Origin: a virus
IMG/VR virus record: IMGVR_UViG_3300044815_000115
Location: 1 to 64,000 of that record
Length of the DNA stretch: 64,000 nucleotides
Direction: 5' to 3' (one strand)
Shown here: in pieces, positions 1-62,045 of the stretch
How the letters are laid out: every line of letters starts with the position of its first letter
Position numbering within the stretch: the stretch's first letter is position 1
Notes under the pieces: model-generated
The model's database searches: none
Seen by the model: only the letters and a program-made list of their open reading frames with translations
Told to the model about the DNA's origin: nothing
Made by a program: the position numbers and the translations under genes

Positions 1-131
1 CGCGCTTCGGCGTACAGCCACGACCAGGTCTGCGACAGCCGCTCGAGCGGGTTGGTCCGCTCGTCGATGCGCTGCTCATGCTTGGTCCGTCTCCGCCGGG
101 CGGCGGCGCGGGTGCCGGTTTCGCGTGCCAT
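1..131 (-). CDS. hypothetical protein, N-terminal fragment cut by the window edge
   Basis: An open frame begins with ATG at 131 on the minus strand and runs off the left edge after 43 codons. The start is preceded by GAGGAGG at good spacing. The visible N-terminus is rich in Ala and Arg. It is the most downstream visible gene of the leftward operon that begins at 2305. No domain can be recognised from this fragment. Confidence 0.55.
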   Translation of the reverse strand, partial: MARETGTRAAARRRRTKHEQRIDERTNPLERLSQTWSWLYAEA

Positions 132-173
132 GCGCGCGCTTCCCTCCTCGGGGGTAGTTGGTGTTTGTGCAGG

Positions 174-239
174 TCAGAGCAGGTATCCGGCGGCGAACGC
201 GACGCCGAACAGCAGGACCAGGGCGACGAGCCAGCGCAT
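174..239 (-). CDS. 21-residue single-pass membrane peptide
   Basis: The frame starts with ATG one base after the stop of the upstream 92-residue membrane protein. It encodes MRWLVALVLLFGVAF and a few more residues, which is essentially one hydrophobic helix. Position and spacing fit translational coupling in the leftward operon. At this length it could be a chance frame, so only context supports it. Confidence 0.4.
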   Translation of the reverse strand: MRWLVALVLLFGVAFAAGYLL

Positions 240-240
240 G

Positions 241-519
241 TCAGTCCTCGTCCTGGATGGTCAGTTGCCGCCACACGCACAGCAGGAAGATTGCGACCGA
301 GGTGAGGATCGCCGCGACGGCCACCTCGACACCGCCGTGCTGACGGTGCAGGCCGGCGAACGCGACCGGCAGCGTGACCAGCAGCAATACGGCGGATGCG
401 CGGACCGCGGTGAACTTCGGCGGGGGCATCGGCGGGGCGGGTACGGGCGGCGGGGTCTCCACGAACCGGCCCTCGATGAAGGCCGTGGTGGAGGTGGTGC
501 GGGTGTCGAGGGTGGTCAT
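241..519 (-). CDS. small two-helix membrane protein
   Basis: This 92-residue protein has a Pro-rich segment near residues 24-34 and two hydrophobic helices near 40-56 and 66-83. Its start lies three bases from the stop of the upstream 59-residue gene. It belongs to the leftward operon headed by the DUF2637 protein; small membrane proteins next to DUF2637 genes are common in actinomycete transfer (spread) modules. The exact role cannot be read from the sequence. Confidence 0.65.
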   Translation of the reverse strand: MTTLDTRTTSTTAFIEGRFVETPPPVPAPPMPPPKFTAVRASAVLLLVTLPVAFAGLHRQHGGVEVAVAAILTSVAIFLLCVWRQLTIQDED

Positions 520-522
520 CGG

Positions 523-702
523 TCAGTCCTCGAACTTCGAAAAGCCGGACACGATCAAGTTCGGGGTGCCGTAGTGCTCGCGTAGGTCCCTCATGACGAC
601 CTCGACGTCGTCCATGTCGCGGATCGGCTCTGGACGGCTGATCTCGGTCCCTCCGAACCGGCCGTGCTCCGTCGTCCAGGCGATCAGGTAGTGGTGGGTC
701 AT
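523..702 (-). CDS. small conserved-looking protein, 59 aa
   Basis: ATG at 702 follows the strong site GAGGAGAG. The ATG overlaps the stop of the preceding 29-residue frame in an ATGA junction. The product is acidic, starts MTHHYLIAWTTEHGRFGG and ends with FEDxx-type acidic residues. It lies between the DUF2637 protein and the two-helix membrane protein. I do not recognise the family. Confidence 0.6.
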   Translation of the reverse strand: MTHHYLIAWTTEHGRFGGTEISRPEPIRDMDDVEVVMRDLREHYGTPNLIVSGFSKFED

Positions 703-788
703 GATTCGCTCTCCTCAGAGGTGGTCGGGTGGTAGCCGTTCACGGGCGTCGTGACGGGCAGAGTGGACTCGGTGGAGGCGGTCTTCAC
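699..788 (-). CDS. very small frame, 29 aa
   Basis: A GTG start overlaps the stop of the DUF2637 gene (GTGA). The frame ends in an ATGA overlap with the next gene. Coupling at both ends is the only support; the product is Thr/Ser/Glu rich with no recognisable fold. It may be a coupling spacer rather than a functional protein. Confidence 0.35.
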   Translation of the reverse strand: MKTASTESTLPVTTPVNGYHPTTSEESES

Positions 789-2305
789 TGGTTCATCGCC
801 TTGCCTCCAGAGGGCCCCTCCGAGCGCAGTTGCGCCTGGGCCTCCGTGACCGCCTCCTGAAGACGGGGGGCTCTCGCCCAGCCCACTCCGAGCTCGTTCA
901 CGATGGCCTGCTGCGACCACTCTCGAACGTCGCCAGAGGGCAGGTTCTTCGCCGCGTTGGAGGGGGTCTCCAGCAGGCGCTGAACTGCCTCTTCGTCGGT
1001 GAAGCGGGGCTTGGTGGAGGCCCTGCCGGATGCGGTCTTGGAGGGGCCTCTGGTGCGGGCCTGGCGGCGGTCCTCCAGGTTGATGGTGGAGTCCTCCGCG
1101 TACTTCTGCTTGAGACTTCGGAGACCCTCCGCATACTCGGCGGAGGCGGCCTCGGCACGCTTCTCGGAGTCGACCTGGAGGGTTTCCAGCCGCCGCTCCA
1201 GGTCCGCGATGGAGGCGTGGAGGGTGGCGACCTCGGAGGTGTGGAGGGCCACCGTGGAGGTGAGTTCGGAGGTGAGATGCTCTACCCGATGGAGGTGCGC
1301 ATCCCGTTCGGAGGTGACCTCCGACAGTCGCGCGGCGGAGTCATCAAGCTTCGCCTGGAGGTCCCCCACCGCCTTCTCGGAGGCTGCCAGGAACCGGCCG
1401 GTGGTGGTCAGTTCAGAGGTGGCCCGATGAAGCTTCGAGGTGCGCTCCTCCAAGGCGACGACAAGCTGCCGGACCCGGGCCACCGGGTTGACCCGCATCC
1501 ACCAGCCGGGGCTGTCCACGGACGTCGCCCACCGCTGCTGCAGGGCAGCGTTGTAGCCCGTCCACGCCGCCTTCGGGTCGGTGACGTAGTTGTCGATCGA
1601 CCAGCGGCGAGCCAGGTAGGCGCGCAGCGGGAACGAGCGGATCCGGTCGCCGGAGAATGTGGCACCGGCCGCGTCGACGACGCCTTCCTTGCGCAGCTGG
1701 ACGTGCTGCATGCGGCGGGTGTGCAGGCCCCACAGCCACGGGGACAGCAGGGACAGCAGCCCGAACGCGGATGCTGCGGCGTTGACACCGAGCTTGTTGT
1801 CGGGGCTGAAGTCGGCGAAGTGCGCGTAGTTGATCGACGCCACGGCGGCGGCGATCGCGTAAGAGGCGCGGCGGAGTTGTGCGGCGGTCTTGCCGGCCTT
1901 GTTCATCAGGGCGTCGTGGGCGTGCCAGCCGACGTACACGGAGATGGACTCGATGGCGGCGGCGATGACCGCGGCGAGGGCGAGCTTGCCGGGGGTGGGC
2001 CAGCCGGCGGGGGCGACCTTCTCGTAGAAGAAGGCGACCTGCCCGTAGATGGCGGCGCCGTTGACGAGTAGCAGCGGCACGTACATGAGCCGCTTGGCCA
2101 CGTCGGTTTTGGCCTTGGCGGGTCTGCGGGCGATCAGGTAGGTGGCGACCGCTCCGGCGGTGACGCCGAGGAGCACGAGGCCTACCGAGAGAAGGGTGTT
2201 GTGCCCGCCCGCCCACACGCCGTCCGCCCAGCCGCCATCGACCGGGACCGTGGGGGTTCCGGACACGGCGGGGCCGTCGTCGGGCTGCAGGGGGATCAGG
2301 GGCAT
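785..2305 (-). CDS. DUF2637-like membrane protein with coiled coil and C-terminal DNA-binding-like domain
   Basis: This 506-residue protein has about four membrane helices in residues 38-190, including a segment with Glu-Ser-Ile-Ser-Val and a His-Ala-His motif. A long heptad-rich coiled coil follows at about 285-400, then a basic linker and a helix-turn-helix-like end at about 430-495. DUF2637 proteins are found in conjugative plasmids and integrative elements of actinomycetes, where they are linked to transfer or spread. The start is supported by a leaderless promoter: TAGAGT at 2312-2317 (minus strand) lies six bases before ATG. It heads the leftward operon and is divergent from an XRE regulator, whose likely operator lies between them. 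An alternative role is DNA anchoring at the membrane. The DUF assignment is recognition by pattern, not a search. Confidence 0.75.
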   Translation of the reverse strand: MPLIPLQPDDGPAVSGTPTVPVDGGWADGVWAGGHNTLLSVGLVLLGVTAGAVATYLIARRPAKAKTDVAKRLMYVPLLLVNGAAIYGQVAFFYEKVAPAGWPTPGKLALAAVIAAAIESISVYVGWHAHDALMNKAGKTAAQLRRASYAIAAAVASINYAHFADFSPDNKLGVNAAASAFGLLSLLSPWLWGLHTRRMQHVQLRKEGVVDAAGATFSGDRIRSFPLRAYLARRWSIDNYVTDPKAAWTGYNAALQQRWATSVDSPGWWMRVNPVARVRQLVVALEERTSKLHRATSELTTTGRFLAASEKAVGDLQAKLDDSAARLSEVTSERDAHLHRVEHLTSELTSTVALHTSEVATLHASIADLERRLETLQVDSEKRAEAASAEYAEGLRSLKQKYAEDSTINLEDRRQARTRGPSKTASGRASTKPRFTDEEAVQRLLETPSNAAKNLPSGDVREWSQQAIVNELGVGWARAPRLQEAVTEAQAQLRSEGPSGGKAMNQ

Positions 2306-2656: not shown

Positions 2657-3105
2657 CGACGGCCGAGGTGCACGAACACCCCGGCCGCTCAGCCCGCCCA
2701 CGTAGTGCGAATACGCAGGAGAGAACCTTGACGGTAACTCAGGACGCGGGGTATGTCAGCCCTCCCCCCGACACCGAAGCCACCTACACCGCGGCCGAAC
2801 TGCTCGAGGTGGTCCTCGCCGCGTACGAGCGCGGGCTGAACGACGCGGCGAGCCAAGACGGCCGTGACCACTGGAACCGGCCCGAGCTGATCGCCGGCTT
2901 CCGGGAGCAACGCAAAGCCGCCGAGATTCGGGCCATGCGCGAACGGGCCGCATCCCGCTACCTGGTCCGCGGGCTCACCGACGGCTACGACTACAAAGGT
3001 GGTCCGGTGGACTTCGAGACGGGCATGCCGCTCGGATCCGCCTGCGCGTGGCTACGGCGCCAGCGCGCTCGTCCCGCGTACGAGTTGGCAGGCGGCGACC
3101 AGTGA
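2653..3105 (+). CDS. hypothetical protein upstream of replication helicase
   Basis: This 150-residue protein overlaps the XRE gene by ATGA and the helicase gene by GTGA, so the three form one operon. The N-terminal 25 codons have weak bias; a TTG at 2728 preceded by AGGAGAG is an alternative start. The body has a helical segment (about 46-110) followed by a GYDYKGGPVDF-type stretch. No family is recognised. Its position suggests an accessory role in replication of this module. Confidence 0.7.
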   Translation: MTTAEVHEHPGRSARPRSANTQERTLTVTQDAGYVSPPPDTEATYTAAELLEVVLAAYERGLNDAASQDGRDHWNRPELIAGFREQRKAAEIRAMRERAASRYLVRGLTDGYDYKGGPVDFETGMPLGSACAWLRRQRARPAYELAGGDQ

Positions 3106-4580
3106 CCGACGAAGAGCCGCTCTGGGGTGACGAGCTCACCGACCCCAGCTTCGAACCACCCGACGACCCCTGGGCGGCGCCGGAAACCGTGGCCGCGAGA
3201 GCCCTCGACGCCGGCGAGAAGGCCGTGCCGCTGGCCAACCTGCCCGAAGAGTTCTGGGGTGCCCGCCAACTGTTCAAAGACGTCCGGCAGGCGGCACACG
3301 CCACGGTCAACTCCGCCGACGCGGTCCTCGGCAGCGTGCTCGCGCGCGCGTCAGGAATGGTCTCGCACGAGCTCCGGTTCGACTCCGGTCGCGGCCCGAA
3401 CGGGTCACTGAACCTGTTCGTCGCGATCGTCGCCCCCTCGGGCATCGGCAAGACGACCGCCGTGCAATGCGCCGACGACCTGGTCATGACGCCGCGGTAC
3501 CTGTCCTGCGGGGAGGGTCGCAGCGACATGGACCGGTTCCGCGACGGCGTCGGGCTGGGTACAGGCGAAGGGATCGCCGAGGCGTACATGGGGATGATCG
3601 AACGCCCCACCGGCGCCGTCCAGGCCCGGTCCACGAAGACCGCGAACGCCGGCGACCCGGTGATGAAGGCGGAACGCGGCCAGGTCCGCCACAACGCGTT
3701 CCTCTATCTCGACGAGGGTCAAACCCTTTCGAAGATGATGAAGGAACGGCAGGGCACGACCATCGGCGCGACGATCAGGACCGCCTGGACCGGTCAGGCC
3801 CTCGGTCAGGCGAACGCACAGGAGGCCACGACCCGGTTCGTGGGGCGGAACATGTACTCGCTGGGCATGGTGATCGGATACCAGCCCGCGGTCGCCCAGG
3901 ATCTGCTGTCCGACGGCGGCCCGGGCACACCGCAGCGGTTCCTGTGGCTGTCGGCGCTGGACCCGAACATCCCCGAGGATGGTCCGTTCATGCCGGCGCG
4001 GGTCGTTCTGCCGCTCGAGACCGTCGACGGGCTGGCGTTGTCCGGCGTGGTGAGCTTTCCGGAGGCATACAAAGCCGATCTTCGGCGGGCGCACCGGGCG
4101 AAGGTGATCGCTGAGGTTGCGGTCGACGAGTTGGATTCCCACGAGCCGCTGATGCTGTGCAAGCTTGCCGCCTTGTTCTGTGTGCTCGACGCGCGGATGG
4201 CCGTGTCGGGCGAGGACATCGAGTTGGCGAACCTGCTGTGGCGGGTGTCGTGCGCGACGCGGGACCGGCTGATGGAGTTCGGCCGGCAGGAGGCGCAACG
4301 GCGTAAGGCGGAAAAGTTGGCGACGAGGATCGCCGAGACTGAGGCGGTCAGTCTTGCAACGAGGGGCGTCGACCACACGATCGACCGGGTGGCTCGGCTG
4401 ATTTTCCGGCGGGTGCGGTCACATGAGGGGCCTGCACTGCGGTATCTGCTGCGCAAGAACATCGGCTCGGCCAACAAGCCCTATTTCGATGCCGCCCTTG
4501 CGCATGCGAAGGGTCAGCGGTGGGTGGCGACGGACGAGGACGACCGCGAGGTTCTGCTGGGGTCGGCGACCCCCCTGTGA
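3102..4580 (+). CDS. P-loop ATPase, DUF3987-type replication helicase
   Basis: The 492-residue product contains a Walker A motif APSGIGKTT (Lys at about 117) and a Walker B segment FLYLDEGQ about 95 residues later. The GTG start at 3102 overlaps the stop of the previous gene (GTGA); longer starts would invade that gene. Proteins of this type (DUF3987-like) act as replication helicase or primase-helicase components in actinomycete integrative elements. A block with palindromes, an AT-rich stretch and poly-G follows directly, which may be its origin. No primase domain is seen. The family call is by motif and length. Confidence 0.75.
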   Translation: MTDEEPLWGDELTDPSFEPPDDPWAAPETVAARALDAGEKAVPLANLPEEFWGARQLFKDVRQAAHATVNSADAVLGSVLARASGMVSHELRFDSGRGPNGSLNLFVAIVAPSGIGKTTAVQCADDLVMTPRYLSCGEGRSDMDRFRDGVGLGTGEGIAEAYMGMIERPTGAVQARSTKTANAGDPVMKAERGQVRHNAFLYLDEGQTLSKMMKERQGTTIGATIRTAWTGQALGQANAQEATTRFVGRNMYSLGMVIGYQPAVAQDLLSDGGPGTPQRFLWLSALDPNIPEDGPFMPARVVLPLETVDGLALSGVVSFPEAYKADLRRAHRAKVIAEVAVDELDSHEPLMLCKLAALFCVLDARMAVSGEDIELANLLWRVSCATRDRLMEFGRQEAQRRKAEKLATRIAETEAVSLATRGVDHTIDRVARLIFRRVRSHEGPALRYLLRKNIGSANKPYFDAALAHAKGQRWVATDEDDREVLLGSATPL

Positions 4581-4592
4581 TTGGGGGGCGAA

Positions 4593-4610
4593 GGGGGGCG
4601 ATCGCCCCCC
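4593..4610. repeat. 18-bp perfect palindrome, copy 1
   Basis: The sequence GGGGGGCGATCGCCCCCC is its own reverse complement. It lies 12 bp after the helicase stop and could act as a terminator stem or a protein-binding site. An identical copy is at 4840-4857. Confidence 0.8.
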
Positions 4611-4731
4611 ATGGGGCTAACGAACAACACAAAACCGAGATTTTTTCGGGATCTTGCAATTGCCCAAAATCCGGTGCCTGAGCTGCATAGATAGATAAAT
4701 ATCAATATCAAAGAGGGGTGACTACGCGCGA

Positions 4732-4845
4732 GGGTGTCTGTGGGGTAGTGGGGGGGGGGGGGGCGGGGGGGGGGGCGGGCGGGGGGGGGGGGGGGGGCGG
4801 GGGGGGGGGGGGGGGGGGCGTGGGTGTCTGTGGGGTAGTGGGGGG
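4732..4845. repeat. 24-bp direct repeats bracketing a poly-G tract
   Basis: GGGTGTCTGTGGGGTAGTGGG occurs at 4732-4752 and again at 4822-4842. Between them, from about 4749 to 4819, the strand is almost only G with single C interruptions. This can form G-quadruplexes and will cause polymerase slippage, so the exact length in the assembly is uncertain. Confidence 0.75.
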
Positions 4846-4857
4846 CGATCGCCCCCC
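4840..4857. repeat. 18-bp perfect palindrome, copy 2
   Basis: This is identical to 4593-4610 (GGGGGGCGATCGCCCCCC). The two copies bracket the AT-rich segment and the poly-G tract, 230 bp apart. Confidence 0.8.
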
Positions 4858-5111
4858 CGCCCCCCACGCAGGCCAACCGCCCCCCACCCTCGATGCGCCT
4901 TTGACCTTCGAATGACAGGAGATCCAGGATGCCGACCCCGTTCGGAGAACAGACTTCCGTCGACGAACTGTCCCTGATCCGACAGCCGGACTGTGATCAA
5001 CCCGATACGCTCAGTACTCGTGCCGTCAACGCTGCGGAGGCACCCATGCCAATCAGCGCACTCCTGACACGAACGACGGAACAGTGGGCTGCGCAACCGC
5101 GCCAACGGCAG

Positions 5112-6013: not shown

Positions 6014-6190
6014 ATGGAGCATGACACCGACGCGCAGAGCGACTCGGCCCCCGCAACGGCCGGCGTGGGCACCCCGCAGGGCCGTGAGCGCGCCCGTAGG
6101 CTCCTCGCCGACGGACGTGACCGGATGAGCCAGCAGGACTGGGCCGACCTGCGGGAGCGGTTCGGTGTCCGCGTGCGGCACGTGGCGTGA
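6014..6190 (+). CDS. small putative antitoxin, 58 aa
   Basis: The product is 58 residues with an acidic N-terminus and an Arg-rich helical C-terminal half (RERARRLLADGRDRMSQQDW). It starts leaderless at 6014 and overlaps the PIN-domain gene by GTGA, the typical arrangement of a type II toxin-antitoxin pair. No DNA-binding fold is certain. It could instead simply be a translational leader. Confidence 0.6.
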   Translation: MEHDTDAQSDSAPATAGVGTPQGRERARRLLADGRDRMSQQDWADLRERFGVRVRHVA

Positions 6191-6582
6191 CCGATAGGCC
6201 TGTCACGCTCGTCCTGGACACCTCCGCGATCATCGCCTACACCCGGGCCGAAACCGCCATCCACGTCGGTGACGTGCTGGTCCAGGTGGTCGACGAGGAT
6301 GCGCTGGCTGTTCTGCCGGCGTCCTGCCTCGCCGAGGCACTGCCGTCGGTCGCCGACCCGGACATGCTGGATCTGCTGGTGGCGCATGAGGCGACCACAG
6401 TCCTCGCGGACGGCCCCGACATGTGGCGGGACCTCGCGGCGATGGTGGAGATCACCGGCCGTCCGGACTCGGCGTCCGCGGCACTCGCAGCGATCGACTT
6501 CACCGCGAGCATCCTCACCCGCGCCCCACTGTTGTACGCCGGGCTCCGCGACGGCCGGATGGTCATCCCGATCGGCGAATAG
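6187..6582 (+). CDS. PIN-domain protein, VapC-like putative toxin
   Basis: The product is 131 residues with the PIN start VLDTSAIIAYT (Asp11) and a conserved-looking Glu50 in SCLAEAL. PIN toxins are Mg-dependent RNases that use about four acidic residues. The usual C-terminal Thr-Arg-Asp appears here as ILTRAPLLYAGL, so one expected acid is missing, which may lower activity. GTG at 6187 overlaps the upstream stop. The upstream 58-residue protein is the likely antitoxin. Confidence 0.75.
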   Translation: MTDRPVTLVLDTSAIIAYTRAETAIHVGDVLVQVVDEDALAVLPASCLAEALPSVADPDMLDLLVAHEATTVLADGPDMWRDLAAMVEITGRPDSASAALAAIDFTASILTRAPLLYAGLRDGRMVIPIGE

Positions 6583-14775: not shown

Positions 14776-15019
14776 TCTTCTTTGGCCGACCCCTCGGTGG
14801 CGTCTCGGCCGCAACGGCCGCCAGATATGCGGCCAGACCGTCCAGTCGGCGCGCCGGGTTGGCTCGGAATTCCATGAGCATCGCCTGCAGTAGTTGGTTC
14901 ATGTTGACCCCGTTCGCCTCGGCCGACTCCTTCGCAGCGTCGTAGAGCTCAGGCTCTGGGCGAAAGTTGCGGGTGGGCCAGCGGGTCACTCGGTCAGCAT
15001 CCCATAACGTGCTTGCCAT
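14753..15019 (-). CDS. ribbon-helix-helix-like regulator, antisense to the operon
   Basis: The 88-residue protein has the RHH pattern RNFRPEPELYDAAKESAE then NGVNMNQLLQAMLMEF, and a basic C-terminus. It is the only leftward gene in this stretch and splits the rightward chain into two units. A divergent spacer with an inverted repeat (15024-15039) separates it from the Cys-rich gene at 15089, which it probably regulates together with itself. Confidence 0.65.
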   Translation of the reverse strand: MASTLWDADRVTRWPTRNFRPEPELYDAAKESAEANGVNMNQLLQAMLMEFRANPARRLDGLAAYLAAVAAETPPRGRPKKRTPPAGS

Positions 15020-15088
15020 TTTCTATGCAGGCTGCGATAGTTGTAACAGATAATTGGAGCGCCATATCTGACCAGGAAGTTTCTGCGC
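15020..15088. promoter_or_regulatory. divergent promoter region with inverted repeat
   Basis: TATGCAG-G-CTGCGATA at 15024-15039 is an imperfect inverted repeat. Rightward, TTGTAA (15041-15046) and TATCTG (15065-15070) are a possible -35/-10 pair. The segment is more AT-rich than its surroundings. Confidence 0.4.
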
Positions 15089-23485: not shown

Positions 23486-24574
23486 ATGGGATACAGGCTG
23501 CGCCGAGAGGTACGTGACGCCCTGCCGCCGGGGCTGCTCACCGCCGGCGAACGTCTCCTCGTGCTGGAGTTGGCAGACATCTGCGGCGACGACACCCGTG
23601 AGGGTTGGCCCGGAATTGCCAAACTGGCCACCCTCACCGACATGTCGGGCCGAAGTATCCAGCAGACGCTGAACCGGGTCGGCAAGAAGTGGATCGAGCT
23701 CCGCGTTCCGCTTGGCAGGAACGACGACGGCAAGGTCTATTACGCCCATGCAGGGAGGCGCACCGTGTACCGGTTCCCCGTCCTGAAGCCCTCGGGTGGT
23801 GCGATGGATGAGTGCCCAAGTGGTGCGACAGATGAGCGTCCACCTTCCGAGAGTGGTGCGACAGATCGGTCCGAGTGGTGCGATGGATCGGTAGAAGAGG
23901 TGCGACAGATGAGTGACCCTTCTCCTCAAGGAACCTCTCAAAAATTCAACCACTCATCTCTCTCTGTGGCCGACGTCGAAGCGCCGGGCTCGACTGTGGT
24001 TAACGAGGCAGATCGAGAGAGAGATGAGTCGGCTTCACAAAGAAGCAAAACCCATCAACTGCTCCTCGAAGCGGGTTGCCCCGACGATGACCTCGACGAC
24101 GTAGAAGACGAACTCAAACGCCGCTTCGAAGTCCGCTCCCCCGCCTGGTTCCGCACCGTCCACGGCAACGGCGAACTGGCCGCCCTCGTCGGTGAGGTTC
24201 TTGAAGCCCTCAACGGTACGACCGCAACAGCGCCGTCCCGGAAGGCGTTCATGGAGACCCTCGTGGGTGAACCCGAGTGCGGTCACGGCATCGAGGGCGG
24301 CAACATCGCATGGGACCACGACGGCTGGATGCTCTGCTCCACCTGCCGCCGGCTGGCCGGGTGGACCGAGGTCAACAACCAAGGGCGCACCGACGGACAG
24401 GACCCTCGCCGTAAGCGGTCCGTCAGCGTGTTGCGCGCAGAGCAGGCCCTCGCGGTCGCCGCCGAGCTGGATGCGCTGTACCCGCGTGAGATTCGCTCAC
24501 CGGCCGATCAGCGCGTCGCTGACGGTGCCGTGTTGTACGAGAAGTACCGACGACTCGAAGGAGAACCCGCATGA
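23486..24574 (+). CDS. lambda O-like replication initiator with internal iterons
   Basis: The 362-residue protein has an N-terminal winged-helix region (residues 1-95, including WPGIAKLATLTDMSGRSIQQ), a variable middle (about 100-190), then a Zn-like segment (CGHGIEGG...CSTC) and a C-terminal tail with SVSVLRAEQALAVAAELD. Phage initiators of this layout bind the origin through the N-terminus and recruit helicase through the C-terminus. The variable middle is encoded by five iterons and an AT-rich stretch (23798-23967), so the origin is probably inside the gene, as in lambda O. ATG at 23486 is preferred; GTG starts upstream are possible. No helicase gene follows in this region. Confidence 0.75.
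   Translation: MGYRLRREVRDALPPGLLTAGERLLVLELADICGDDTREGWPGIAKLATLTDMSGRSIQQTLNRVGKKWIELRVPLGRNDDGKVYYAHAGRRTVYRFPVLKPSGGAMDECPSGATDERPPSESGATDRSEWCDGSVEEVRQMSDPSPQGTSQKFNHSSLSVADVEAPGSTVVNEADRERDESASQRSKTHQLLLEAGCPDDDLDDVEDELKRRFEVRSPAWFRTVHGNGELAALVGEVLEALNGTTATAPSRKAFMETLVGEPECGHGIEGGNIAWDHDGWMLCSTCRRLAGWTEVNNQGRTDGQDPRRKRSVSVLRAEQALAVAAELDALYPREIRSPADQRVADGAVLYEKYRRLEGEPA
23798..23915 (+). repeat. five 17-bp iterons
   Basis: Copies start at 23798, 23822, 23855, 23877 and 23899, each close to GGTGCGACAGATGAGTG. Spacings are 24, 33, 22 and 22 bp, near two or three helical turns. This fits cooperative binding of the encoded initiator. Confidence 0.8.
23916..24029. other. candidate DNA-unwinding region with inverted repeat
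   Basis: After the iterons comes an AT-richer run (around CTCAAAAATTCAACC) and a long inverted repeat: CACTCATCTCTCTCT (23951-23965) and AGAGAGAGATGAGTC (24014-24028). The inverted arm also matches the GATGAG of the iterons. This completes an origin-like layout. Confidence 0.55.
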
Positions 24575-34252: not shown

Positions 34253-35635
34253 ATGGCGACCGTTGAGGAACGGGGTAACTCCACCAGGGTCAATTGGCGA
34301 CTCGGCGGCACCCGTGACGGTGCCCGGCAGTCTTGCACATTCCAGGGAACGTCCGTGGCGCGCGCAAAATTGGCGAACGCGGCGAAGGCCGTGATCGAGT
34401 CGCGGAACCACAACATGACCCGCGCCGAGTGTTACGCGGCGGTACTCGGGCAGGAGCCGGTCGCCACCGACTCGATCGTGCCGACGGTGAAGATGTGGGT
34501 CGGTCAGTACCTCGAGATGCGGGCTCGGGCCCGTGACGTGCAGCCCGACACCATCGAGCGGTACCGGCAGATCCTTCAGACGCGGGTGGTGCCCCGGCTC
34601 GGGCACCTGCGCCTCGACGAGATCACCGAGGACGACATCAAGGACTGGGTGGCGTGGATGTCCAGCCGTCGTGTGACGAAGGGCAGCCGGAACCGGGTCG
34701 CGACGGATCGTCTCCTTGCGGGGCAGACGGTGCGGCGGGCGCATTCGATCCTGCACACCTGCCTGGGTGCGGCGGTGCCGAGGTGGATCCCCCGGAATCC
34801 GGCGGCGCGGCCGGCGGGGGCACGCAAACATACTGCGGGCCTGCCGAAGGTTGAGGCGTTCGAGGGGATGTTCCTGACGCCTGCCGAGGTGCGCATGGTG
34901 CTGGACCGGTGCGGTGAGGCGATCCGGGACCTGGTGTACACGGATCTGCGCACCGGCATGCGGCTGGGTGAGATCGTCGCGTTGCAAGCCAAGCACGTCG
35001 CGCGGGGGCCCAACGGTGTCGTGGTGAAGGTGCGCCGGGCGTTGAAGGATGACGGGTCGATCGGGCCGCCGAAGTCGGCGAAGTCGATCCGTGACCTGCC
35101 GGTGAGCAACACGGTGGGGCGGATGCTGTTGGGGCGGGTCGCGGGGAGACGGCCGACGGATCTGGTGTTTCCGTCGCCGCGGGGCAAGGTGTGGGATGAG
35201 AATAATCTGCGGGAGCGGCATTGGCTGCCTGCGGTTGCCGCCGCCCAGCGGTGTGTGGAGCATCCGCCTGCGGAGCCGCCGAAGCCGAGGCGGGGGCCGA
35301 GGCGCAAGTTACGCAACGACGAGGTGTCGACGTGTCCATGTGAGACCCGGTTGACGCGGCGGCCGAGGTTGCACGATCTTCGCCACACGCATGCTTCGAT
35401 GCTGATTCATGCCGGGTTCACGCCGAAGAAGGTGCAGGGGCGGATGGGTCACGCCAGCTACCTCGTGACGATGAACATTTACGGTCACCTGTGGGACCTG
35501 GGTGATGAGGGCGAGCTGGACGCGGTGGAGCGGCTGCTGTCGGGCGATGTGTCTAGTCCTCACCGCGGGCGAGCTGGATCAGCCGAACGGCGTGTGCGAC
35601 GCGTTGCCGTTCGGCGTCGCGTTTCTGGTCGATGA
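34253..35635 (+). CDS. int: tyrosine-family integrase
   Basis: The 460-residue protein has a core-binding domain (about 75-190) and a catalytic domain (205-430). Catalytic residues are visible: Arg237 in TDLRTGMRLGE, a Lys near 274-277, His374/Arg377 in LHDLRHTHAS, His400 in MGHASYL, and Tyr410 in MNIYGHLWD. The enzyme would integrate and excise the element at the tRNA core just upstream. The C-terminal 25-30 residues are Arg-rich and overlap the 3' end of the leftward repressor gene by 83 bp, which is unusual; an ancestral stop near the end of SGDVSS may have been lost. The gene reads away from the att core. Confidence 0.9.
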   Translation: MATVEERGNSTRVNWRLGGTRDGARQSCTFQGTSVARAKLANAAKAVIESRNHNMTRAECYAAVLGQEPVATDSIVPTVKMWVGQYLEMRARARDVQPDTIERYRQILQTRVVPRLGHLRLDEITEDDIKDWVAWMSSRRVTKGSRNRVATDRLLAGQTVRRAHSILHTCLGAAVPRWIPRNPAARPAGARKHTAGLPKVEAFEGMFLTPAEVRMVLDRCGEAIRDLVYTDLRTGMRLGEIVALQAKHVARGPNGVVVKVRRALKDDGSIGPPKSAKSIRDLPVSNTVGRMLLGRVAGRRPTDLVFPSPRGKVWDENNLRERHWLPAVAAAQRCVEHPPAEPPKPRRGPRRKLRNDEVSTCPCETRLTRRPRLHDLRHTHASMLIHAGFTPKKVQGRMGHASYLVTMNIYGHLWDLGDEGELDAVERLLSGDVSSPHRGRAGSAERRVRRVAVRRRVSGR

Positions 35636-36202: not shown

Positions 36203-36447
36203 TGCGAACCAAGCTCGACGGCGACGCCGTCCGCCGACTGCGTGAGGAGCAAGGCCTCAGCACTCTGCAACTCGCACACGCAGTCGGAAAAAACCGGACC
36301 TACATCTGGCGGCTTGAGGAAGGTAAGCGTCTCTACGGCTCGGCCAAGACCCGCCTCGACATCGCCCGAGCGCTCGGGGTGGGCCTCGCCGAGATAACGC
36401 TGACCGAGCCCGACGGCCAGCCCAACCCGGCGGCGGTGGCCGCGTGA
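36202..36447 (+). CDS. Cro-like XRE regulator, 81 aa
   Basis: The leaderless ATG at 36202 starts MRTKLDGDAVRRLREEQGLS with the HTH LSTLQLAHAVGKNRTYIWRL. It is divergent from the repressor and first in the rightward early operon. It probably antagonises the repressor at the shared operators. Coupled to the next gene by overlap. Confidence 0.8.
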   Translation: MRTKLDGDAVRRLREEQGLSTLQLAHAVGKNRTYIWRLEEGKRLYGSAKTRLDIARALGVGLAEITLTEPDGQPNPAAVAA

Positions 36448-36818
36448 TCTCCGGGCCGATCCCCGACGCCGACACCATCGCCGAGGCCGTGTCCGAAGCT
36501 GTCGCCCGGCGACTGGAAGCCGCGATCGCCGCCTACCACCGCGACGAGGCGGGCGCCCGCGTCTTCTCCCTCGCCGAGGCCGCCGGGCGGCTGCACATGT
36601 CGGAGCAGAAGCTGACCCTCGAGTGTCGTGCCGGCAAGGTCGCCCACACGCGGATCGGCAAGTTCCGGGGCATGACCGCCGAGCAGGTCGACCGGTATGC
36701 GGCCCAGCATGCCGTCTTCGACGACGTCACGCCTTCCACGCCCGCCGCCGACGTCGCCGCAGCGATTGCGATGAGCCGGCGCTCCGGCGGTCGGCGCAGT
36801 CCGAGGCGGGCGGCATGA
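36444..36818 (+). CDS. excisionase-like MerR/HTH_17 protein, 124 aa
   Basis: GTG at 36444 overlaps the Cro-like stop. The central part has AEAAGRLHMSEQKLTLECRAG and FRGMTAEQVDRYAA, a winged-helix pattern seen in excisionases. Position next to repressor, Cro and integrase supports an excision or early regulatory role. Confidence 0.65.
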   Translation: MISGPIPDADTIAEAVSEAVARRLEAAIAAYHRDEAGARVFSLAEAAGRLHMSEQKLTLECRAGKVAHTRIGKFRGMTAEQVDRYAAQHAVFDDVTPSTPAADVAAAIAMSRRSGGRRSPRRAA

Positions 36819-37752: not shown

Positions 37753-37998
37753 ATGTCTCTTCAGACTATCGGCACATGTCGATCAACGCCAAACGGCTTG
37801 ACAGAAATTGACACGCCCGAAACCTGGGGTACCGCGTCCCGGTTCCGGCGTCTGGCCCGGGTCGACGCGGACACGGCCTCCTACTGGCTGCGGACCGTCG
37901 GCCGCCGCGCCCACCATTTCGGTCACCCGAACCTGAACATCGACCGCTGCCCGGGCTGCGCGTTCGAGGATTCGGCGAAAGCTGAGGCGGCCCGATGA
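37753..37998 (+). CDS. small protein with CxxC, 81 aa
   Basis: ATG at 37753 follows GAGGG. The product ends with IDRCPGCAFEDSAKAEAA, a zinc-like pair. Coupled to the methyltransferase gene (ATGA). Confidence 0.55.
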   Translation: MSLQTIGTCRSTPNGLTEIDTPETWGTASRFRRLARVDADTASYWLRTVGRRAHHFGHPNLNIDRCPGCAFEDSAKAEAAR

Positions 37999-39614
37999 TC
38001 CGGGTCTACGACGAGTTCGCCGGCGTTGGCGGCACCAGCCACGGAGCCTCGTACGTGCCCGGCGTGGAGGTGTACGCGGCGGCGAACCACGACAAGCACG
38101 CCGTCGACTCGCACACCCTCAACTTCCCCGGCGCCCGCCACTTCCAGGCCGACATCACCAAGCTGCCAGTCGACAAAATGCCGTACGCGGAGCTGTTCAG
38201 CGCGTCGCCAGCCTGTCCCGCCTGGACCACCGCGAACGGAGTGCGCCGCGAGTTCGACCGGGCCAACGTTGAGGTTCAGACCCTGTTTGACGTTGCCGAG
38301 GACGAGGACCCGAAGCTGACTGCGCGCCGCGAGGAGTACAAGCGGTCCCGGCTACTGATGAAGGAGATCCCCCGCTACCTGCGTTCCATGCAGGAACGCG
38401 GGAAACCGGTGCTGGCCGGGATGATGGAGAACGTCATCCAATGCCGGATGTGGCACGAGTGGGATGACTGGTTCGCCGAGATCGTCAAGCTCGGGTACGA
38501 GATCCGGATCATTGCGTTCAACTCGATGCACGCCCAACCGGTGCGCGCGCTGCAGGCGCCGCAGTCCCGCGACCGCCTCTACCTCGCGTACTGGCACAAC
38601 AGCCTGAAGCGCAAGCCGGACTTCGACAAGTGGCTGCGCCCGCAGGCGTACTGCCCGCGCTGCGACGAGACCGTGTCGGCGTTGCAGGTGTTCAAGAAGC
38701 CGGGCGCCGACATGGGCCGCTACGGCGCCCAGTACGTCTACCAATGCCCGAGCGCCAGCTGCCGCGGGCAGGAAGTCTTCCCGGAGACGTTGGCCGCGCT
38801 GGCTGCGATTGACCCGACCATTCCGGGGATCCGGATCGGCGACCGCGGCGAGTACAGGTTGCCGTTGCTCGCTGATGCGACCTTGGACCGGATCCGTGCC
38901 GGTGTCCGCCGGTACTGGGCGCCGCTGATGGTGCCGGTTGAGGGCCGGCCGGGTAAGTCCGCGGCGCCGGTGTCGCAGCCGATCCGGACGCAGACGTGCC
39001 GCAACGAGACAGGGTTTGCGCTGCCGCCGTTCATCACTCCGTTGCGGGGTGGCGGCGACAAGGAGAATGCCCGGTCGGTGTCGGATCCGCTGACCACGGT
39101 GACGGCTTCCGGGAATCATCACGGCCTGGCGCTGCCGCCGATCGTGATGCGCCATAACACGGCCCGTGGTGACGCCGGTCAGATGTGCTCGCCGGCGACG
39201 GAGCCGGTGCGGACGTTGACGACGGCGGGCCATCAGTCGCTGGCGTTTTCGCCGCATCTGCTGGTGCCGTTCTACGGGTCGAGCACGTCGGCGGCCCCGG
39301 CGACCAGTCCGGTGGGCACGTTGACCACCCGTGACCGGTACGGCCTGGCCACCCCGGATGTGGATGCGATTGCGGACGGCTTCGACCTGGACGACGTCCT
39401 GTTCCGGATGCTCGCGCCGCATGAGATTGCGCGGGCGATGGCGTTCGCGCCGACCTACCTGACGTCGGCAAAGGACAAGCGTACCCAAGTGCGTCTATAT
39501 GGGAATGCTGTTACGGCGCCGGTGGCCGAGGTCATCATGTCGGCACTGGTCGAGTGCATCACCGGTGTGGAGCTTGAGCGCACCGTCTCCCAACCTGAGC
39601 TGGTGGCAGCATGA
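37995..39614 (+). CDS. C5 cytosine DNA methyltransferase
   Basis: The 539-residue protein has motif I DEFAGVGGTSHGA (6-18), motif IV ASPACPAWTTANG with catalytic Cys74 (the usual Pro before Cys is Ala), motif VI MMENVIQ, motif VIII APQSRDRLYLAYW, and motif X-like VRLYGNAVTAPVAEVI. A zinc-ribbon insert (CPRC...CPSASC) and four repeats of a segment starting P-x-x-T-x-T (residues about 328-455) lie before motif IX/X, so target recognition is unusual. Phage methyltransferases protect their DNA from host restriction. Likely expressed early. Confidence 0.9.
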   Translation: MIRVYDEFAGVGGTSHGASYVPGVEVYAAANHDKHAVDSHTLNFPGARHFQADITKLPVDKMPYAELFSASPACPAWTTANGVRREFDRANVEVQTLFDVAEDEDPKLTARREEYKRSRLLMKEIPRYLRSMQERGKPVLAGMMENVIQCRMWHEWDDWFAEIVKLGYEIRIIAFNSMHAQPVRALQAPQSRDRLYLAYWHNSLKRKPDFDKWLRPQAYCPRCDETVSALQVFKKPGADMGRYGAQYVYQCPSASCRGQEVFPETLAALAAIDPTIPGIRIGDRGEYRLPLLADATLDRIRAGVRRYWAPLMVPVEGRPGKSAAPVSQPIRTQTCRNETGFALPPFITPLRGGGDKENARSVSDPLTTVTASGNHHGLALPPIVMRHNTARGDAGQMCSPATEPVRTLTTAGHQSLAFSPHLLVPFYGSSTSAAPATSPVGTLTTRDRYGLATPDVDAIADGFDLDDVLFRMLAPHEIARAMAFAPTYLTSAKDKRTQVRLYGNAVTAPVAEVIMSALVECITGVELERTVSQPELVAA

Positions 39615-58898: not shown

Positions 58899-59111
58899 AT
58901 GCCAAGGAAAGACGGCCGGCCGGATCTGACGTACCGCGCGCCGATTCTGAGCGTCGATCTGGGCCCGTTCGGCTGGGAGATCTGGCCGTGCCACGAGTGC
59001 CTGCCCTGGCATGTGGAGTTCGTCCTCGACGACGGAAACTACTACGCCCGCGAGTGGCACGCGGCCGAGTGCCCGGTCCTAGTCGAACTTCTCAACCAGG
59101 GCCAGGCCTGA
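58899..59111 (+). CDS. small hypothetical protein, 70 aa
   Basis: ATG at 58899 follows AGGAGGCTTCCGC. The product has GPFGWEIWPCHECLPWHVEF, with a CxxC. Overlaps the initiator gene start (TGATG). Confidence 0.6.
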   Translation: MPRKDGRPDLTYRAPILSVDLGPFGWEIWPCHECLPWHVEFVLDDGNYYAREWHAAECPVLVELLNQGQA

Positions 59112-60262
59112 TGTCCCGCAACTACGCCCAGTTCACCACCGCCATCTGGCGCCCGGGTGACGACTTCGGCAACCTCACCCGCAACGGCCAATGGGTTTAC
59201 TTCATGCTGTCCACCCAGCCTGATATCAGCGCGGCCGGCACCTTGTCGCTCAACGTCCGGCGCTGGTCCGGCCGGTGCGCAGACGGGTCAAAGCAGGACG
59301 TGATCGACGGCCTCCAGGAGTTGAGCACCCATCGGTTCGTCTTCTACGACTACGACACCGAGGAGGTACTGCTGCGGGGCTTCATCAAGGCTGATGGCGG
59401 CTACGGCAACCGCAAGCGGAAGCCAGTGATCGAGCGCGCTGTCCGGGATGTGGAGTCGCCAACGCTGCGGAAGGTGCTCGCGGAGGAGCTGGCGAAGGTC
59501 GGCCTACCGGCGGAATGGGCATCGGATAGCCCATCGGACGTTCATCGCATGGCCTATCCGCTTGACGGTGACGAACCGCCGGAGGCAACGGGACGGGGGC
59601 AATCAGATTCAACGTTTCCGCAGGTCGATAGCCTATCCGATACCCTATCGGGTACGGCATCCGATAGCACATGCCGTTCTGACGGGGTTGTGGTTACTCA
59701 AGCTCTAGTAGTAGATCCCCAACCCTCAACCCGCAATCCTCAACCCGTTCCGCCCCCGGCGGACAGCGCTTCCGCGCCGTCGGAGCAAGTGGCGTTCGAG
59801 GGGATGCCCGAGGTGCCTGTCGTCGCAGAGACCGAGGAGCAGACCAGCTGGCGGCTGGCGCGGGCCTGGGAGAAACGACGACAGGACGCCCGGAAGCCGA
59901 TCATCGCTCGCGGCAGCAAGAAGAAGCCCGACCAAGTCCTCATGCCGTTGAAGAACCTCATCCGCGGTGCCCTGATTGCGAAGTACACCGAGGGCGAGGT
60001 GAACGCAGCCCTTGAGGCGTGCAACGAGGGGATTCCGACGGGCAACAGGTTCGACAAGGTCATTGCGGATCTCCGAGATGCCGCTGCGGCAGAAGACCCA
60101 AACAACCAAGGGCGCGCCGGTTCATCGCTCGCCCGCAGGCCGATGCCGGACCAAGTACGTCGTTCAACATCAGCGCTGCGCGCCGAGCAGGCGCTCTCTG
60201 TCGCTGACGAACTTGATCGTGAATACGGACACGGGCTCTATGCCCAGGAAGGAACCCAATGA
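59111..60262 (+). CDS. second replication initiator with internal repeats, upstream of DnaB
   Basis: The 383-residue product has a winged-helix-like N-terminal part (NLTRNGQWVYFMLSTQPDIS, SAAGTLSLNVRRWSG, about 1-100), a low-complexity middle (about 135-250) encoded by a cluster of GATAG-type repeats, a helical domain and a C-terminal tail with STSALRAEQALSVADELD. It also has NNQGR before the tail. The tail matches the initiator at 23486-24574 (SVSVLRAEQALAVAAELD, also preceded by NNQGR). The next two genes are a likely loader and DnaB. A lambda O/P-DnaB-like initiation set is the best reading. Confidence 0.75.
   Translation: MSRNYAQFTTAIWRPGDDFGNLTRNGQWVYFMLSTQPDISAAGTLSLNVRRWSGRCADGSKQDVIDGLQELSTHRFVFYDYDTEEVLLRGFIKADGGYGNRKRKPVIERAVRDVESPTLRKVLAEELAKVGLPAEWASDSPSDVHRMAYPLDGDEPPEATGRGQSDSTFPQVDSLSDTLSGTASDSTCRSDGVVVTQALVVDPQPSTRNPQPVPPPADSASAPSEQVAFEGMPEVPVVAETEEQTSWRLARAWEKRRQDARKPIIARGSKKKPDQVLMPLKNLIRGALIAKYTEGEVNAALEACNEGIPTGNRFDKVIADLRDAAAAEDPNNQGRAGSSLARRPMPDQVRRSTSALRAEQALSVADELDREYGHGLYAQEGTQ
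59519..59668. repeat. cluster of GATAG-core repeats inside initiator gene
   Basis: Copies in both orientations: GCATCGGATAGC (59519-59530), reverse GCGGATAGGCC (59551-59561), TCGATAGCC (59625-59633), reverse GGTATCGGATAGGC (59631-59644), reverse CCCGATAGGG (59643-59652) and GCATCCGATAGC (59657-59668). An AT-richer stretch and a 10-bp tandem repeat CCTCAACCCG follow (about 59,724-59,748). This parallels the iteron/AT layout at 23.8 kb. Confidence 0.65.
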
Positions 60263-60705
60263 CACCCGGAGAGGCGGCCAGGCTGCTCGCGGCCTGCGCC
60301 ATGTACGACTTCCGAACGGTCGAGAAGGCCGACGGGATCGCATGGCATCACGTGATCGGCGATCTCGACTTCGACGATGCGATGGAGTCGGTGCGCCAGC
60401 ACTACCAGAACTCGACGGACCGCATGATGCCCGCCCACGTCCGCCAGGGCGTGAAGGCGATCCGGGCCGAACGGCGTCGACAGGAACCGTCGGAGGCGAC
60501 TGCGCTGCCGTCACCGTTCGAGCAGGACATGAACCGGCAGGTCCGTATGGAGGCTGGCGCGGCCAGTGTCCGGGAGGTGCTGGCAAGGATCACCTCCCAC
60601 CTGGACCAGAAGTCCCCGGCGCCGGTGTCGGCGATGGAGCAGCTGCGGGCGATCACTCCAGGACCGGACTGGGCCGGCGACGAGCAGGACGGGGATCAGC
60701 GATGA
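60259..60705 (+). CDS. putative helicase loader, 148 aa
   Basis: ATG at 60259 overlaps the initiator stop. The N-terminal 75 residues have MTPGEAARLLAACAMYDFRT, VIGDLDFDDAMESVRQHYQN and PAHVRQGVKAIRAERRR, the layout of G39P/DnaI-type loader N-termini. A helical C-terminus follows. Being between initiator and DnaB fits a lambda P-like loader role. No AAA+ domain is present. Confidence 0.65.
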   Translation: MTPGEAARLLAACAMYDFRTVEKADGIAWHHVIGDLDFDDAMESVRQHYQNSTDRMMPAHVRQGVKAIRAERRRQEPSEATALPSPFEQDMNRQVRMEAGAASVREVLARITSHLDQKSPAPVSAMEQLRAITPGPDWAGDEQDGDQR

Positions 60706-62045
60706 CCGAGGGCAGGTCCGACCGGATGCCGCCGCAGGACGTCGAGGCGGAGCAGGCGACGCTGGGCGGGATGCTGCTGTCGAAGGACACCATCGACGCC
60801 GTGTCGGAGATCCTGGCTCCGGGAGACTTCTACCGGCCGATCCACAAGACGGTGTTCGACGCGATCGTCGGGTTGCACGCGAAGGGCGAGCCGGCCGATT
60901 CCCGCACCGTCACCGGGGCACTGTTCGACTCCGGTGACCTGGTGCGGGTCGGTGGTGCCCCGTACCTGCACACCCTGACGGAGTGCGTCCCGACCGCGGC
61001 GAGCGCCCCGTACTACGCGCGGATCGTCGCCGACCGGGCCGTGTCCCGGCGTCTGGTCGAGGCGGGCATCCGTATCACCCAGTTGGGTTACGGCTCCGCT
61101 GCCGGTGACGGGGTTGAGTTGTCCGATGTCGTCGACCTGGCGCAGCAGGCCGTGTACGACATCACCGTCGACCGTGGCGCGAGCGAATACTCGCGGCTCG
61201 ACGAGATGCTGCAGCCCACCCTCGACGACATCGAGGCCGCCGCCGGCAAGGACGGCCGGATGTCGGGGGTGCCGACCGGTTTCATCGACATGGACCGGCT
61301 CCTCAACGGCCTACAGCCAGGTCAGGTCATCGTCGTTGCTGGACGGCCAGGGCTCGGCAAGTCGACGGTGGGTTTGGACGTCGTCCGGCATGCGGCGATC
61401 CGGGCGGATATGGCGTCGGCGTTCTTCACCTTGGAGATGAGCAAGGTGGAGGTGGTCACGCGCCTACTGTCGGCCGAGGCCCGCGTGCCGATGCATGTCC
61501 TGCGCTCGGGGCAACTTTCCGACGACGACTGGGCACGACTGGCCCGACGCATGGGGGAGATCTCCGAAGCGCCGATCTTCGTCGACGACACCCCGAGCAT
61601 GGGTTTGGCGGACATCCGTGCCAAGGCGCGGCAGTTGAAGAAGCGCCACAACCTGCGGCTGCTGGTCGTCGACTATCTGCAGCTGATGACCTCGCCGAAG
61701 CGGACGGAGAGCCGGCAGCAGGAGGTTTCGGACCTGTCGCGGAGTCTGAAGCTGCTGGCGAAGGAGATCGAGTGTCCGATCATCGCGGTGAGCCAGTTGA
61801 ACCGGGGCCCGGAGAATCGTCAGGACAAGCGTCCGCAACTGTCCGACCTGCGCGAGTCGGGTTCGATCGAGCAGGACGCTGACGTGGTGATCCTGCTGCA
61901 CCGCGACGACTACTACGACAAGGAGTCGGCCCGCGCAGGCGAGGCGGATTTCATCGTGGCTAAACACCGCAATGGCCCGACGGACACGGTCACGGTCGCC
62001 GCCCAACTGCACTTCTCACGCTTCGTCGATATGGCGATCGCATGA
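60702..62045 (+). CDS. dnaB: replicative DNA helicase DnaB
   Basis: The 447-residue product has the DnaB N-terminal domain (VEAEQATLGGMLLSKDTIDA) and the RecA-like helicase domain with GRPGLGKST (Lys220), LLVVDYLQLM (Asp324), SQLNRGPENR and the arginine finger KHRNGPT (Arg423). ATG at 60702 overlaps the loader stop; upstream in-frame sequence belongs to other genes. The length is normal for DnaB, with no intein. Confidence 0.95.
   Translation: MTEGRSDRMPPQDVEAEQATLGGMLLSKDTIDAVSEILAPGDFYRPIHKTVFDAIVGLHAKGEPADSRTVTGALFDSGDLVRVGGAPYLHTLTECVPTAASAPYYARIVADRAVSRRLVEAGIRITQLGYGSAAGDGVELSDVVDLAQQAVYDITVDRGASEYSRLDEMLQPTLDDIEAAAGKDGRMSGVPTGFIDMDRLLNGLQPGQVIVVAGRPGLGKSTVGLDVVRHAAIRADMASAFFTLEMSKVEVVTRLLSAEARVPMHVLRSGQLSDDDWARLARRMGEISEAPIFVDDTPSMGLADIRAKARQLKKRHNLRLLVVDYLQLMTSPKRTESRQQEVSDLSRSLKLLAKEIECPIIAVSQLNRGPENRQDKRPQLSDLRESGSIEQDADVVILLHRDDYYDKESARAGEADFIVAKHRNGPTDTVTVAAQLHFSRFVDMAIA

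What the first reader, a model, noticed from the sequence alone, without database searches (positions are those of the whole stretch)
23798..24029. Lambda O-like origin inside a replication initiator gene
The gene at 23486-24574 contains five near-identical 17-bp iterons (GGTGCGACAGATGAGTG-like) spaced 22, 22, 24 and 33 bp, i.e. about two or three helical turns. An AT-richer stretch and a 15-bp inverted repeat whose arm shares GATGAG with the iterons follow. The gene has a winged-helix N-terminus. The same arrangement (origin within the initiator gene) is known for lambda O. Here it marks a self-replicating module in a region without structural phage genes.
Basis: partly seen in the sequence, partly recalled or inferred. 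Interest (0 to 1): 0.85.

Follow-up and report, generated by a model that had tools for sequence, protein, structure and literature searches.

The report
Phage replication start inside initiator gene
A tailed phage, probably of an actinobacterium, carries a gene for a DNA-replication starter protein with what looks like the protein's own landing sites and melting region inside the coding sequence, as in phage lambda; unusually, the same phage seems to carry a second, different gene built the same way.

Summary
Five copies of GGTGCGAYRGAT, all at 23798-23915, are the only exact matches in the 103-kb record, and they lie in three reading frames, so the repeat is kept as DNA, not as protein. The protein (362 aa) matches phage replication-initiation families. 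A 64%-identical homologue in another phage keeps the core word GGTGCGACA at the same place. More distant relatives have other iterons there, mostly in mixed frames; one is fused end-to-start with DnaB, others precede a 'Replication P' gene. This is a lambda-O-like embedded origin: a new member of a known kind. The 'self-replicating module without structural genes' is only half right: the record is a temperate siphophage with terminase, portal, head protease, tape measure and endolysin outside the window. Beyond the finding, the phage has a second initiator gene (59111-60262) beside its own DnaB, with a different internal array and another easily melted stretch. The two proteins share only a C-terminal tail, suggesting two origins served by one helicase. 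Nothing was tested biochemically.

The parts
23486..24574 (+). Gene A: embedded-origin replication initiator, 362 aa (P0001)
   Evidence: phrog_1032 'replication initiation protein' E=4.5e-7; HTH_36 E=0.013, below Pfam's cut-off; 64% identical N-terminus in L005/L007
23486..23779 (+). Winged-helix DNA-binding N-terminus (residues 1-98)
   Evidence: alignments A1, A2, A4; AlphaFold2 helices 3-12, 20-33, 43-51, 55-69 and strands 75-78, 84-86 at low confidence, pLDDT 55; fold search gives only generic winged helices
23798..23814 (+). Iteron 1, GGTGCGATGGATGAGTG (coding frame 0)
23822..23838 (+). Iteron 2, GGTGCGACAGATGAGCG (frame 0)
23855..23871 (+). Iteron 3, GGTGCGACAGATCGGTC (frame 0)
23877..23893 (+). 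Iteron 4, GGTGCGATGGATCGGTA (frame +1)
23899..23915 (+). Iteron 5, GGTGCGACAGATGAGTG (frame +2)
23905..23965 (.). Candidate DNA-unwinding element (includes CTCTCAAAAATTCAACC)
   Evidence: least stable 40-, 60-, 80- and 100-bp stretch inside any of 205 called genes; 60-bp stability percentile 99.98 in the record
23952..23965 (.). Left arm of perfect 14-bp inverted repeat, contains ACTCATCT (complement of AGATGAGT)
24016..24029 (.). Right arm of the inverted repeat, contains AGATGAGT
24278..24346 (+). C-terminal Cys/His knuckle (CGHG...CSTC); similar Cys clusters near the C-termini of P0002, L125 and L127
   Evidence: sequences; zinc binding is inference
24374..24484 (+). C-terminal tail shared with gene B (NNQGR...LRAEQALAVAAELD)
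   Evidence: BLASTP gene A against gene B, 42% over 74 aa, E=3e-8; own-record search E=7e-5
59111..60262 (+). Gene B: second, unrelated-headed initiator, 383 aa (P0004)
   Evidence: phrog_3171 'replication initiation protein' E=2.2e-40
59518..59672 (.). Internal array of gene B: inverted and direct copies of ATCGGATAGCCC
   Evidence: 12-mer, 2 mismatches: 5 copies, 0 of 150 codon shuffles; repeats
59627..59726 (.). Candidate unwinding element of gene B
   Evidence: rank 2-4 of 205 genes for least stable internal DNA
60101..60229 (+). C-terminal tail of gene B shared with gene A
60259..60705 (+). Gene between initiator B and DnaB, position of a helicase loader (function inferred)
   Evidence: phrog_6055, unknown function, E=3.9e-27
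60702..62045 (+). DnaB-like replicative helicase
   Evidence: phrog_19 E=9.3e-115
34253..35635 (+). Integrase; excisionase at 36444-36818
   Evidence: phrog_1 E=1.9e-50; phrog_1840 E=4.3e-6

Best explanation
Gene A encodes a phage replication initiator of the lambda O type in the working sense, with its origin inside its own coding sequence. Proposed steps: the winged-helix head binds the five GGTGCGAYRGAT iterons; the assembled protein strains the AT-richer stretch just downstream so that it melts; the C-terminal part brings in a DnaB-type helicase and theta replication starts. Shown here: the protein-family match, the array, its DNA-level (mixed-frame) conservation, the adjacent easily melted DNA, the same arrangement in homologues, and linkage of relatives to DnaB or P. 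Inferred: iteron binding, unwinding, helicase recruitment, and that the partner is the phage's own DnaB at 60702-62045, suggested only by the tail that gene A shares with gene B.
For: Family: phrog_1032 E=4.5e-7; homologue P0002 also matches 'replication initiation O-like' families. Array: five exact 12-mers only here in 103 kb, in three frames, above codon shuffles. Unwinding element: rank 1 of 205 genes. Homologues: L005/L007 shares the N-terminus (64%) and the core GGTGCGACA. Pseudonocardia pPaSha2 (35%) has GAAAGGGGCC x5 in three frames at the same place. L125 and L127 have AGGTGACCCT-type repeats x7-8 in mixed frames. Pseudomonas D14E, TC7 and Riah have ACCCCCGCAG x7 in mixed frames; in D14E and TC7 a 'Replication P family' gene follows. 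In L125 the gene overlaps by 4 bp the start of a DnaB. Lambdoid precedent for iterons plus AT-rich tract in the middle of O: PMC7466680.
Against: No loader or DnaB gene next to gene A; the downstream genes match nothing. The phage has a second, more conventional initiator-DnaB module, so gene A could be redundant or decayed, although its frame is intact. The winged-helix model is low confidence. No close nucleotide relative in the phage collection. LZ35 repeats are all in one frame, so mixed frames are not universal. The iterons could in principle serve autoregulation only.
Confidence: 0.82

Rival explanations
1. The array is an operator cluster: the protein binds its own gene to shut down its transcription, and does not start replication there.
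For: Winged-helix heads resemble transcription regulators in fold searches; repeats inside a gene can act as a roadblock.
Against: The array lies about 300 bp inside the gene, not at a promoter; it adjoins the least stable intragenic DNA; the families matched are replication initiators; relatives abut DnaB or P.
Confidence: 0.08
2. Gene A is a leftover from a recombination with another phage; only gene B starts replication in this phage.
For: Gene B sits beside the DnaB gene and has its own internal array and melted stretch; gene A stands among small genes of unknown function. Of six records searched with the gene B family, only this one has it.
Against: Gene A is intact, its iterons are preserved, it has the strongest unwinding element in any gene, and it shares gene B's C-terminal tail, which suggests both are kept to meet the same partner.
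Confidence: 0.25
3. The repeats only encode a repetitive peptide linker (Gly-Ala-Thr-Asp).
For: Copies 1-3 share one frame and read GAMDE/GATDE/GATDR. Most metagenome hits to a three-core pattern are collagen-like coding repeats.
Against: Copies 4 and 5 are in the other two frames and encode different peptides; the same shift is seen in L005/L007, pPaSha2, D14E, L125 and L127.
Confidence: 0.01

Closest known systems
Lambda O / ori-lambda and relatives (PMC7466680)
   Same: Winged-helix-type N-terminal initiator, iterons in the middle of the gene, AT-rich tract on one side
   Different: No match to the lambda O Pfam family; different iterons; no P-type loader gene next to it; GC-rich phage, probably of an actinobacterium
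Bacillus phage SPP1 gp38 / oriL and oriR (PMC6316719)
   Different: SPP1 uses one initiator for two origins; here two different initiators each carry their own array
RepA phages of Mycobacterium (PMC7157519)
   Same: Actinobacterial temperate phages with a helix-turn-helix initiator and an origin thought to lie in or next to repA
   Different: Those are plasmid prophages with parABS, and no repeats were reported; here no ParA or ParB match was found and an integrase is present
Element of Pseudonocardia alni pPaSha2 (CP052773.1, 41.9 kb circular)
   Same: Homologous head (35%), mixed-frame iterons right after it, terminase, portal and capsid genes
   Different: Different iteron sequence, no DnaB found, no gene B

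Membership tests
Lambda O family of initiators | Match to the lambda O protein family model | tested here: not met
   Pfam-A scan gives only HTH_36, below cut-off; PHROG phrog_8540 'replication initiation O-like' only E=0.037 for P0001
Lambda O family of initiators | N-terminal winged-helix DNA-binding domain | tested here: inconclusive
   Secondary structure fits, but pLDDT 55 and only generic structural matches
Lambda O family of initiators | Iterons within the initiator gene | tested here: met
Lambda O family of initiators | AT-rich, easily melted tract beside the iterons | tested here: met
   rank 1 of 205 genes
Lambda O family of initiators | Helicase loader (P) or helicase gene directly downstream | tested here: not met
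   Downstream genes match nothing; met in relatives D14E, TC7 and L125
Lambda O family of initiators | Protein binds the iterons and melts the tract | not testable with these tools
   needs biochemistry
Broad class of phage initiators with embedded origin (PHROG replication initiation proteins) | Significant match to a replication initiation protein family | tested here: met
   phrog_1032, E=4.5e-7
Broad class of phage initiators with embedded origin (PHROG replication initiation proteins) | Iteron array conserved in position in homologues | tested here: met
   L007, pPaSha2, L125, L127, D14E, Abidatro
P1-type plasmid prophage replicon | Iterons flanking, not inside, repA | tested here: not met
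   All five copies are inside the gene; flanking arrangement in P1 from PMC10999674
P1-type plasmid prophage replicon | parAB partition genes | tested here: not met
   No AAA_31 or ParB_N match in the record; other partition types not tested

The most novel reading that the evidence does not exclude
One temperate phage carries two different embedded-origin initiator genes, each with its own iterons and unwinding element and with unrelated DNA-binding heads, that share a C-terminal tail and so hand over to the same phage DnaB. One might serve early or prophage-state replication and the other lytic replication. SPP1 has two origins with a single initiator; here each origin would have its own initiator.
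Probability: 0.4. Interest if true: 0.62.

Novelty: new member of a known kind. Interest (0 to 1): 0.45.

Why it matters
It gives a precise, testable origin for a phage with no close relative in the phage collection, and shows that the lambda O layout recurs in initiators of distantly related phages while the iteron sequence changes together with the DNA-binding head. If both initiators work, the phage would be a natural case of two origins with separate initiators and one helicase, which would let one ask how origin choice is divided over a phage life cycle. Small replicons for actinobacterial genetics could be built from such modules.

Tried and rejected
Direct searches with the whole protein in genome contigs, viral contigs, phages and plasmids found nothing significant, and the two-sequence head alignment found nothing in genome contigs; the breakthrough was searching for the iteron itself. 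A looser three-core iteron pattern gave 105 stretches; those fetched were mostly collagen-like Gly-Ala-Thr coding repeats, with only L005 and L061 clearly origin-like, so 'GGTGCGA is a universal iteron' is rejected. Searching the shared tail in phages found nothing, and so did a scan of viral contigs for gene B. I considered that 1-33 kb might be a different element flanking an integrated prophage: no att-like direct repeats were found between the integrase region and the right end, and composition is uniform, so the record is treated as one genome. Drawing taxonomic relatives is not possible for a virus record. PDB sequence search empty; fold search of the head uninformative; gene B head model too poor to use.

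Full report
What was checked. The five repeats are real and sit at 23798, 23822, 23855, 23877 and 23899 with spacings 24, 33, 22 and 22. The conserved part is the 12-mer GGTGCGAYRGAT; it occurs exactly five times in the 103,319-bp record, all in this array. Copies 1-3 share a reading frame, copy 4 is shifted by one base and copy 5 by two, so they encode GAMDE, GATDE, GATDR, WCDGS and VRQMS. The repeat is therefore kept as DNA. Shuffling synonymous codons within the gene never gave five copies of a 10-mer with one mismatch in 150 trials.

Unwinding element. Nearest-neighbour stability was computed over the whole record and within each of 205 genes called by a simple script. The least stable stretch lying wholly inside any gene is at 23868-23965 in this gene, at window sizes 40, 60, 80 and 100 bp. 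This measure does not depend on the repeat counts. The gene calls are approximate.

What the protein is. The 362-aa product matches phrog_1032, 'replication initiation protein', at E=4.5e-7, and HTH_36 only below Pfam's cut-off. A scan of viral contigs for two nearby iterons found a 44-kb siphophage record whose gene at L005:11001-12068 (minus) has a 64%-identical N-terminus starting at the same Met-Gly. It has GGTGCGACA repeated in three frames directly after that domain, although the linker proteins do not otherwise align well. A third relative, 35% identical, is in the circular 41.9-kb element pPaSha2 of Pseudonocardia alni, with terminase, portal and capsid genes; there the repeat is GAAAGGGGCC, five copies in three frames. 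Two further types (L125/L126 and L127) have AGGTGACCCT or AGGGTCACCT repeats in mixed frames. Weakly similar annotated phage initiators (E-values not significant) show the same plan: Pseudomonas D14E, TC7 and Riah with seven ACCCCCGCAG in mixed frames, and Abidatro with three GGGGTGAACG. In Acinetobacter LZ35 the repeats share one frame.

Link to replication. In D14E and TC7 the next gene is annotated 'Replication P family'; in LZ35 it is DnaB; in L125 the DnaB reading frame overlaps the initiator's stop codon. Next to gene A in the window no such gene is found. No DnaB match was found in the records of L005, pPaSha2 or L127, so there the host's helicase would have to be used.

Context. The window is the first 64 kb of a virus record. 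Outside it lie a large terminase subunit, portal, head protease, tape measure and endolysin. Inside are an integrase and an excisionase. No ParA or ParB match and no att-like repeats were found. At the record ends a minus-strand run (a membrane protein at 785-2305, small genes, then a P-loop protein resembling FtsK/TraB transfer ATPases by eye only, with no Pfam or PHROG match) recalls the DUF2637-FtsK order of pPaSha2. This suggests, but does not show, that the ends are adjacent in life; direct sequence similarity to the pPaSha2 proteins was not found. The host is inferred to be an actinobacterium from GC content and relatives.

A second initiator. Gene B at 59111-60262 matches phrog_3171, 'replication initiation protein', at E=2.2e-40 and is followed by a small gene and a DnaB. 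After its N-terminal domain it holds direct and inverted copies of ATCGGATAGCCC (5 copies, 0 of 150 codon shuffles for 12-mers with 2 mismatches) and the second to fourth least stable intragenic DNA of the record. Relatives GAL1, P1312 and GD43A-5 also have internal repeats above or near the top of codon-shuffle controls; BrutonGaster is within its control range. Genes A and B share only a C-terminal tail of about 40 residues (NNQGR...LRAEQAL.VA.ELD). The simplest reading is a common partner, most likely the phage DnaB or its loader; a recombination between the two genes would explain the similarity equally well.

Mechanism. Most likely the winged-helix head of protein A binds the iterons, the neighbouring AT-richer stretch melts, and the C-terminal part recruits DnaB. 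Binding, melting and recruitment are inferred. Whether A and B act at different stages of the life cycle is speculation.

Known or new. The plan is that of lambda O (PMC7466680) and of SPP1 gp38 with oriL inside gene 38 (PMC6316719). For mycobacteriophage RepA an origin within repA was proposed but no repeats were found (PMC7157519). Gene A is therefore a new member of a known kind. Two different embedded-origin initiators in one phage, with a shared tail, is the part I did not find described in the few papers searched; that search was limited and covers only the held library.

Caveats. The record is a virus record (IMG/VR collection), apparently a metagenome assembly; a chimera cannot be excluded, although composition is uniform. 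Structure models are weak. All functional steps need experiments.

Noticed in passing
window 4577-4880: Intergenic region after a primase/helicase-like gene (3102-4580, DUF3987): two GGGGGGCGATCGCCCCCC palindromes, a 69-nt nearly pure G run (4750-4818) and the least stable DNA of the whole record (about 4617-4720). It looks like a third origin-like or other regulatory site.
   Followed up: partly
window 59111-62045: Second initiator gene with its own internal inverted/direct array, a small gene in loader position, and DnaB.
   Followed up: yes
L004 18045-19319 and window 1-2305 (minus strand): P-loop ATPase resembling FtsK/TraB by eye and a membrane protein lie on the same strand on either side of the record ends, recalling the DUF2637-FtsK order on pPaSha2; the record may be circular.
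   Followed up: partly
window 6014-6582: Small gene pair that looks like a PIN-domain toxin with antitoxin by eye; no Pfam match.
   Followed up: partly
L004 16375-16785 (minus): Phd/YefM-type antitoxin (PF02604, E=3.5e-9) near the right end of the record.
   Followed up: no
window 37995-39614: Cytosine-C5 DNA methyltransferase of the phage (PF00145).
   Followed up: no
L004 about 14990-15050: Sequence like the 3' half of a tRNA (GCGAGTTCGACTCTCGTCGGGTACACCA) without a tRNA call; possible attachment-site remnant.
   Followed up: partly
L061 8503-9186 (minus): Unrelated-looking phage fragment whose initiator-like gene carries the same core, CGGTGCGACG, in two frames.
   Followed up: partly
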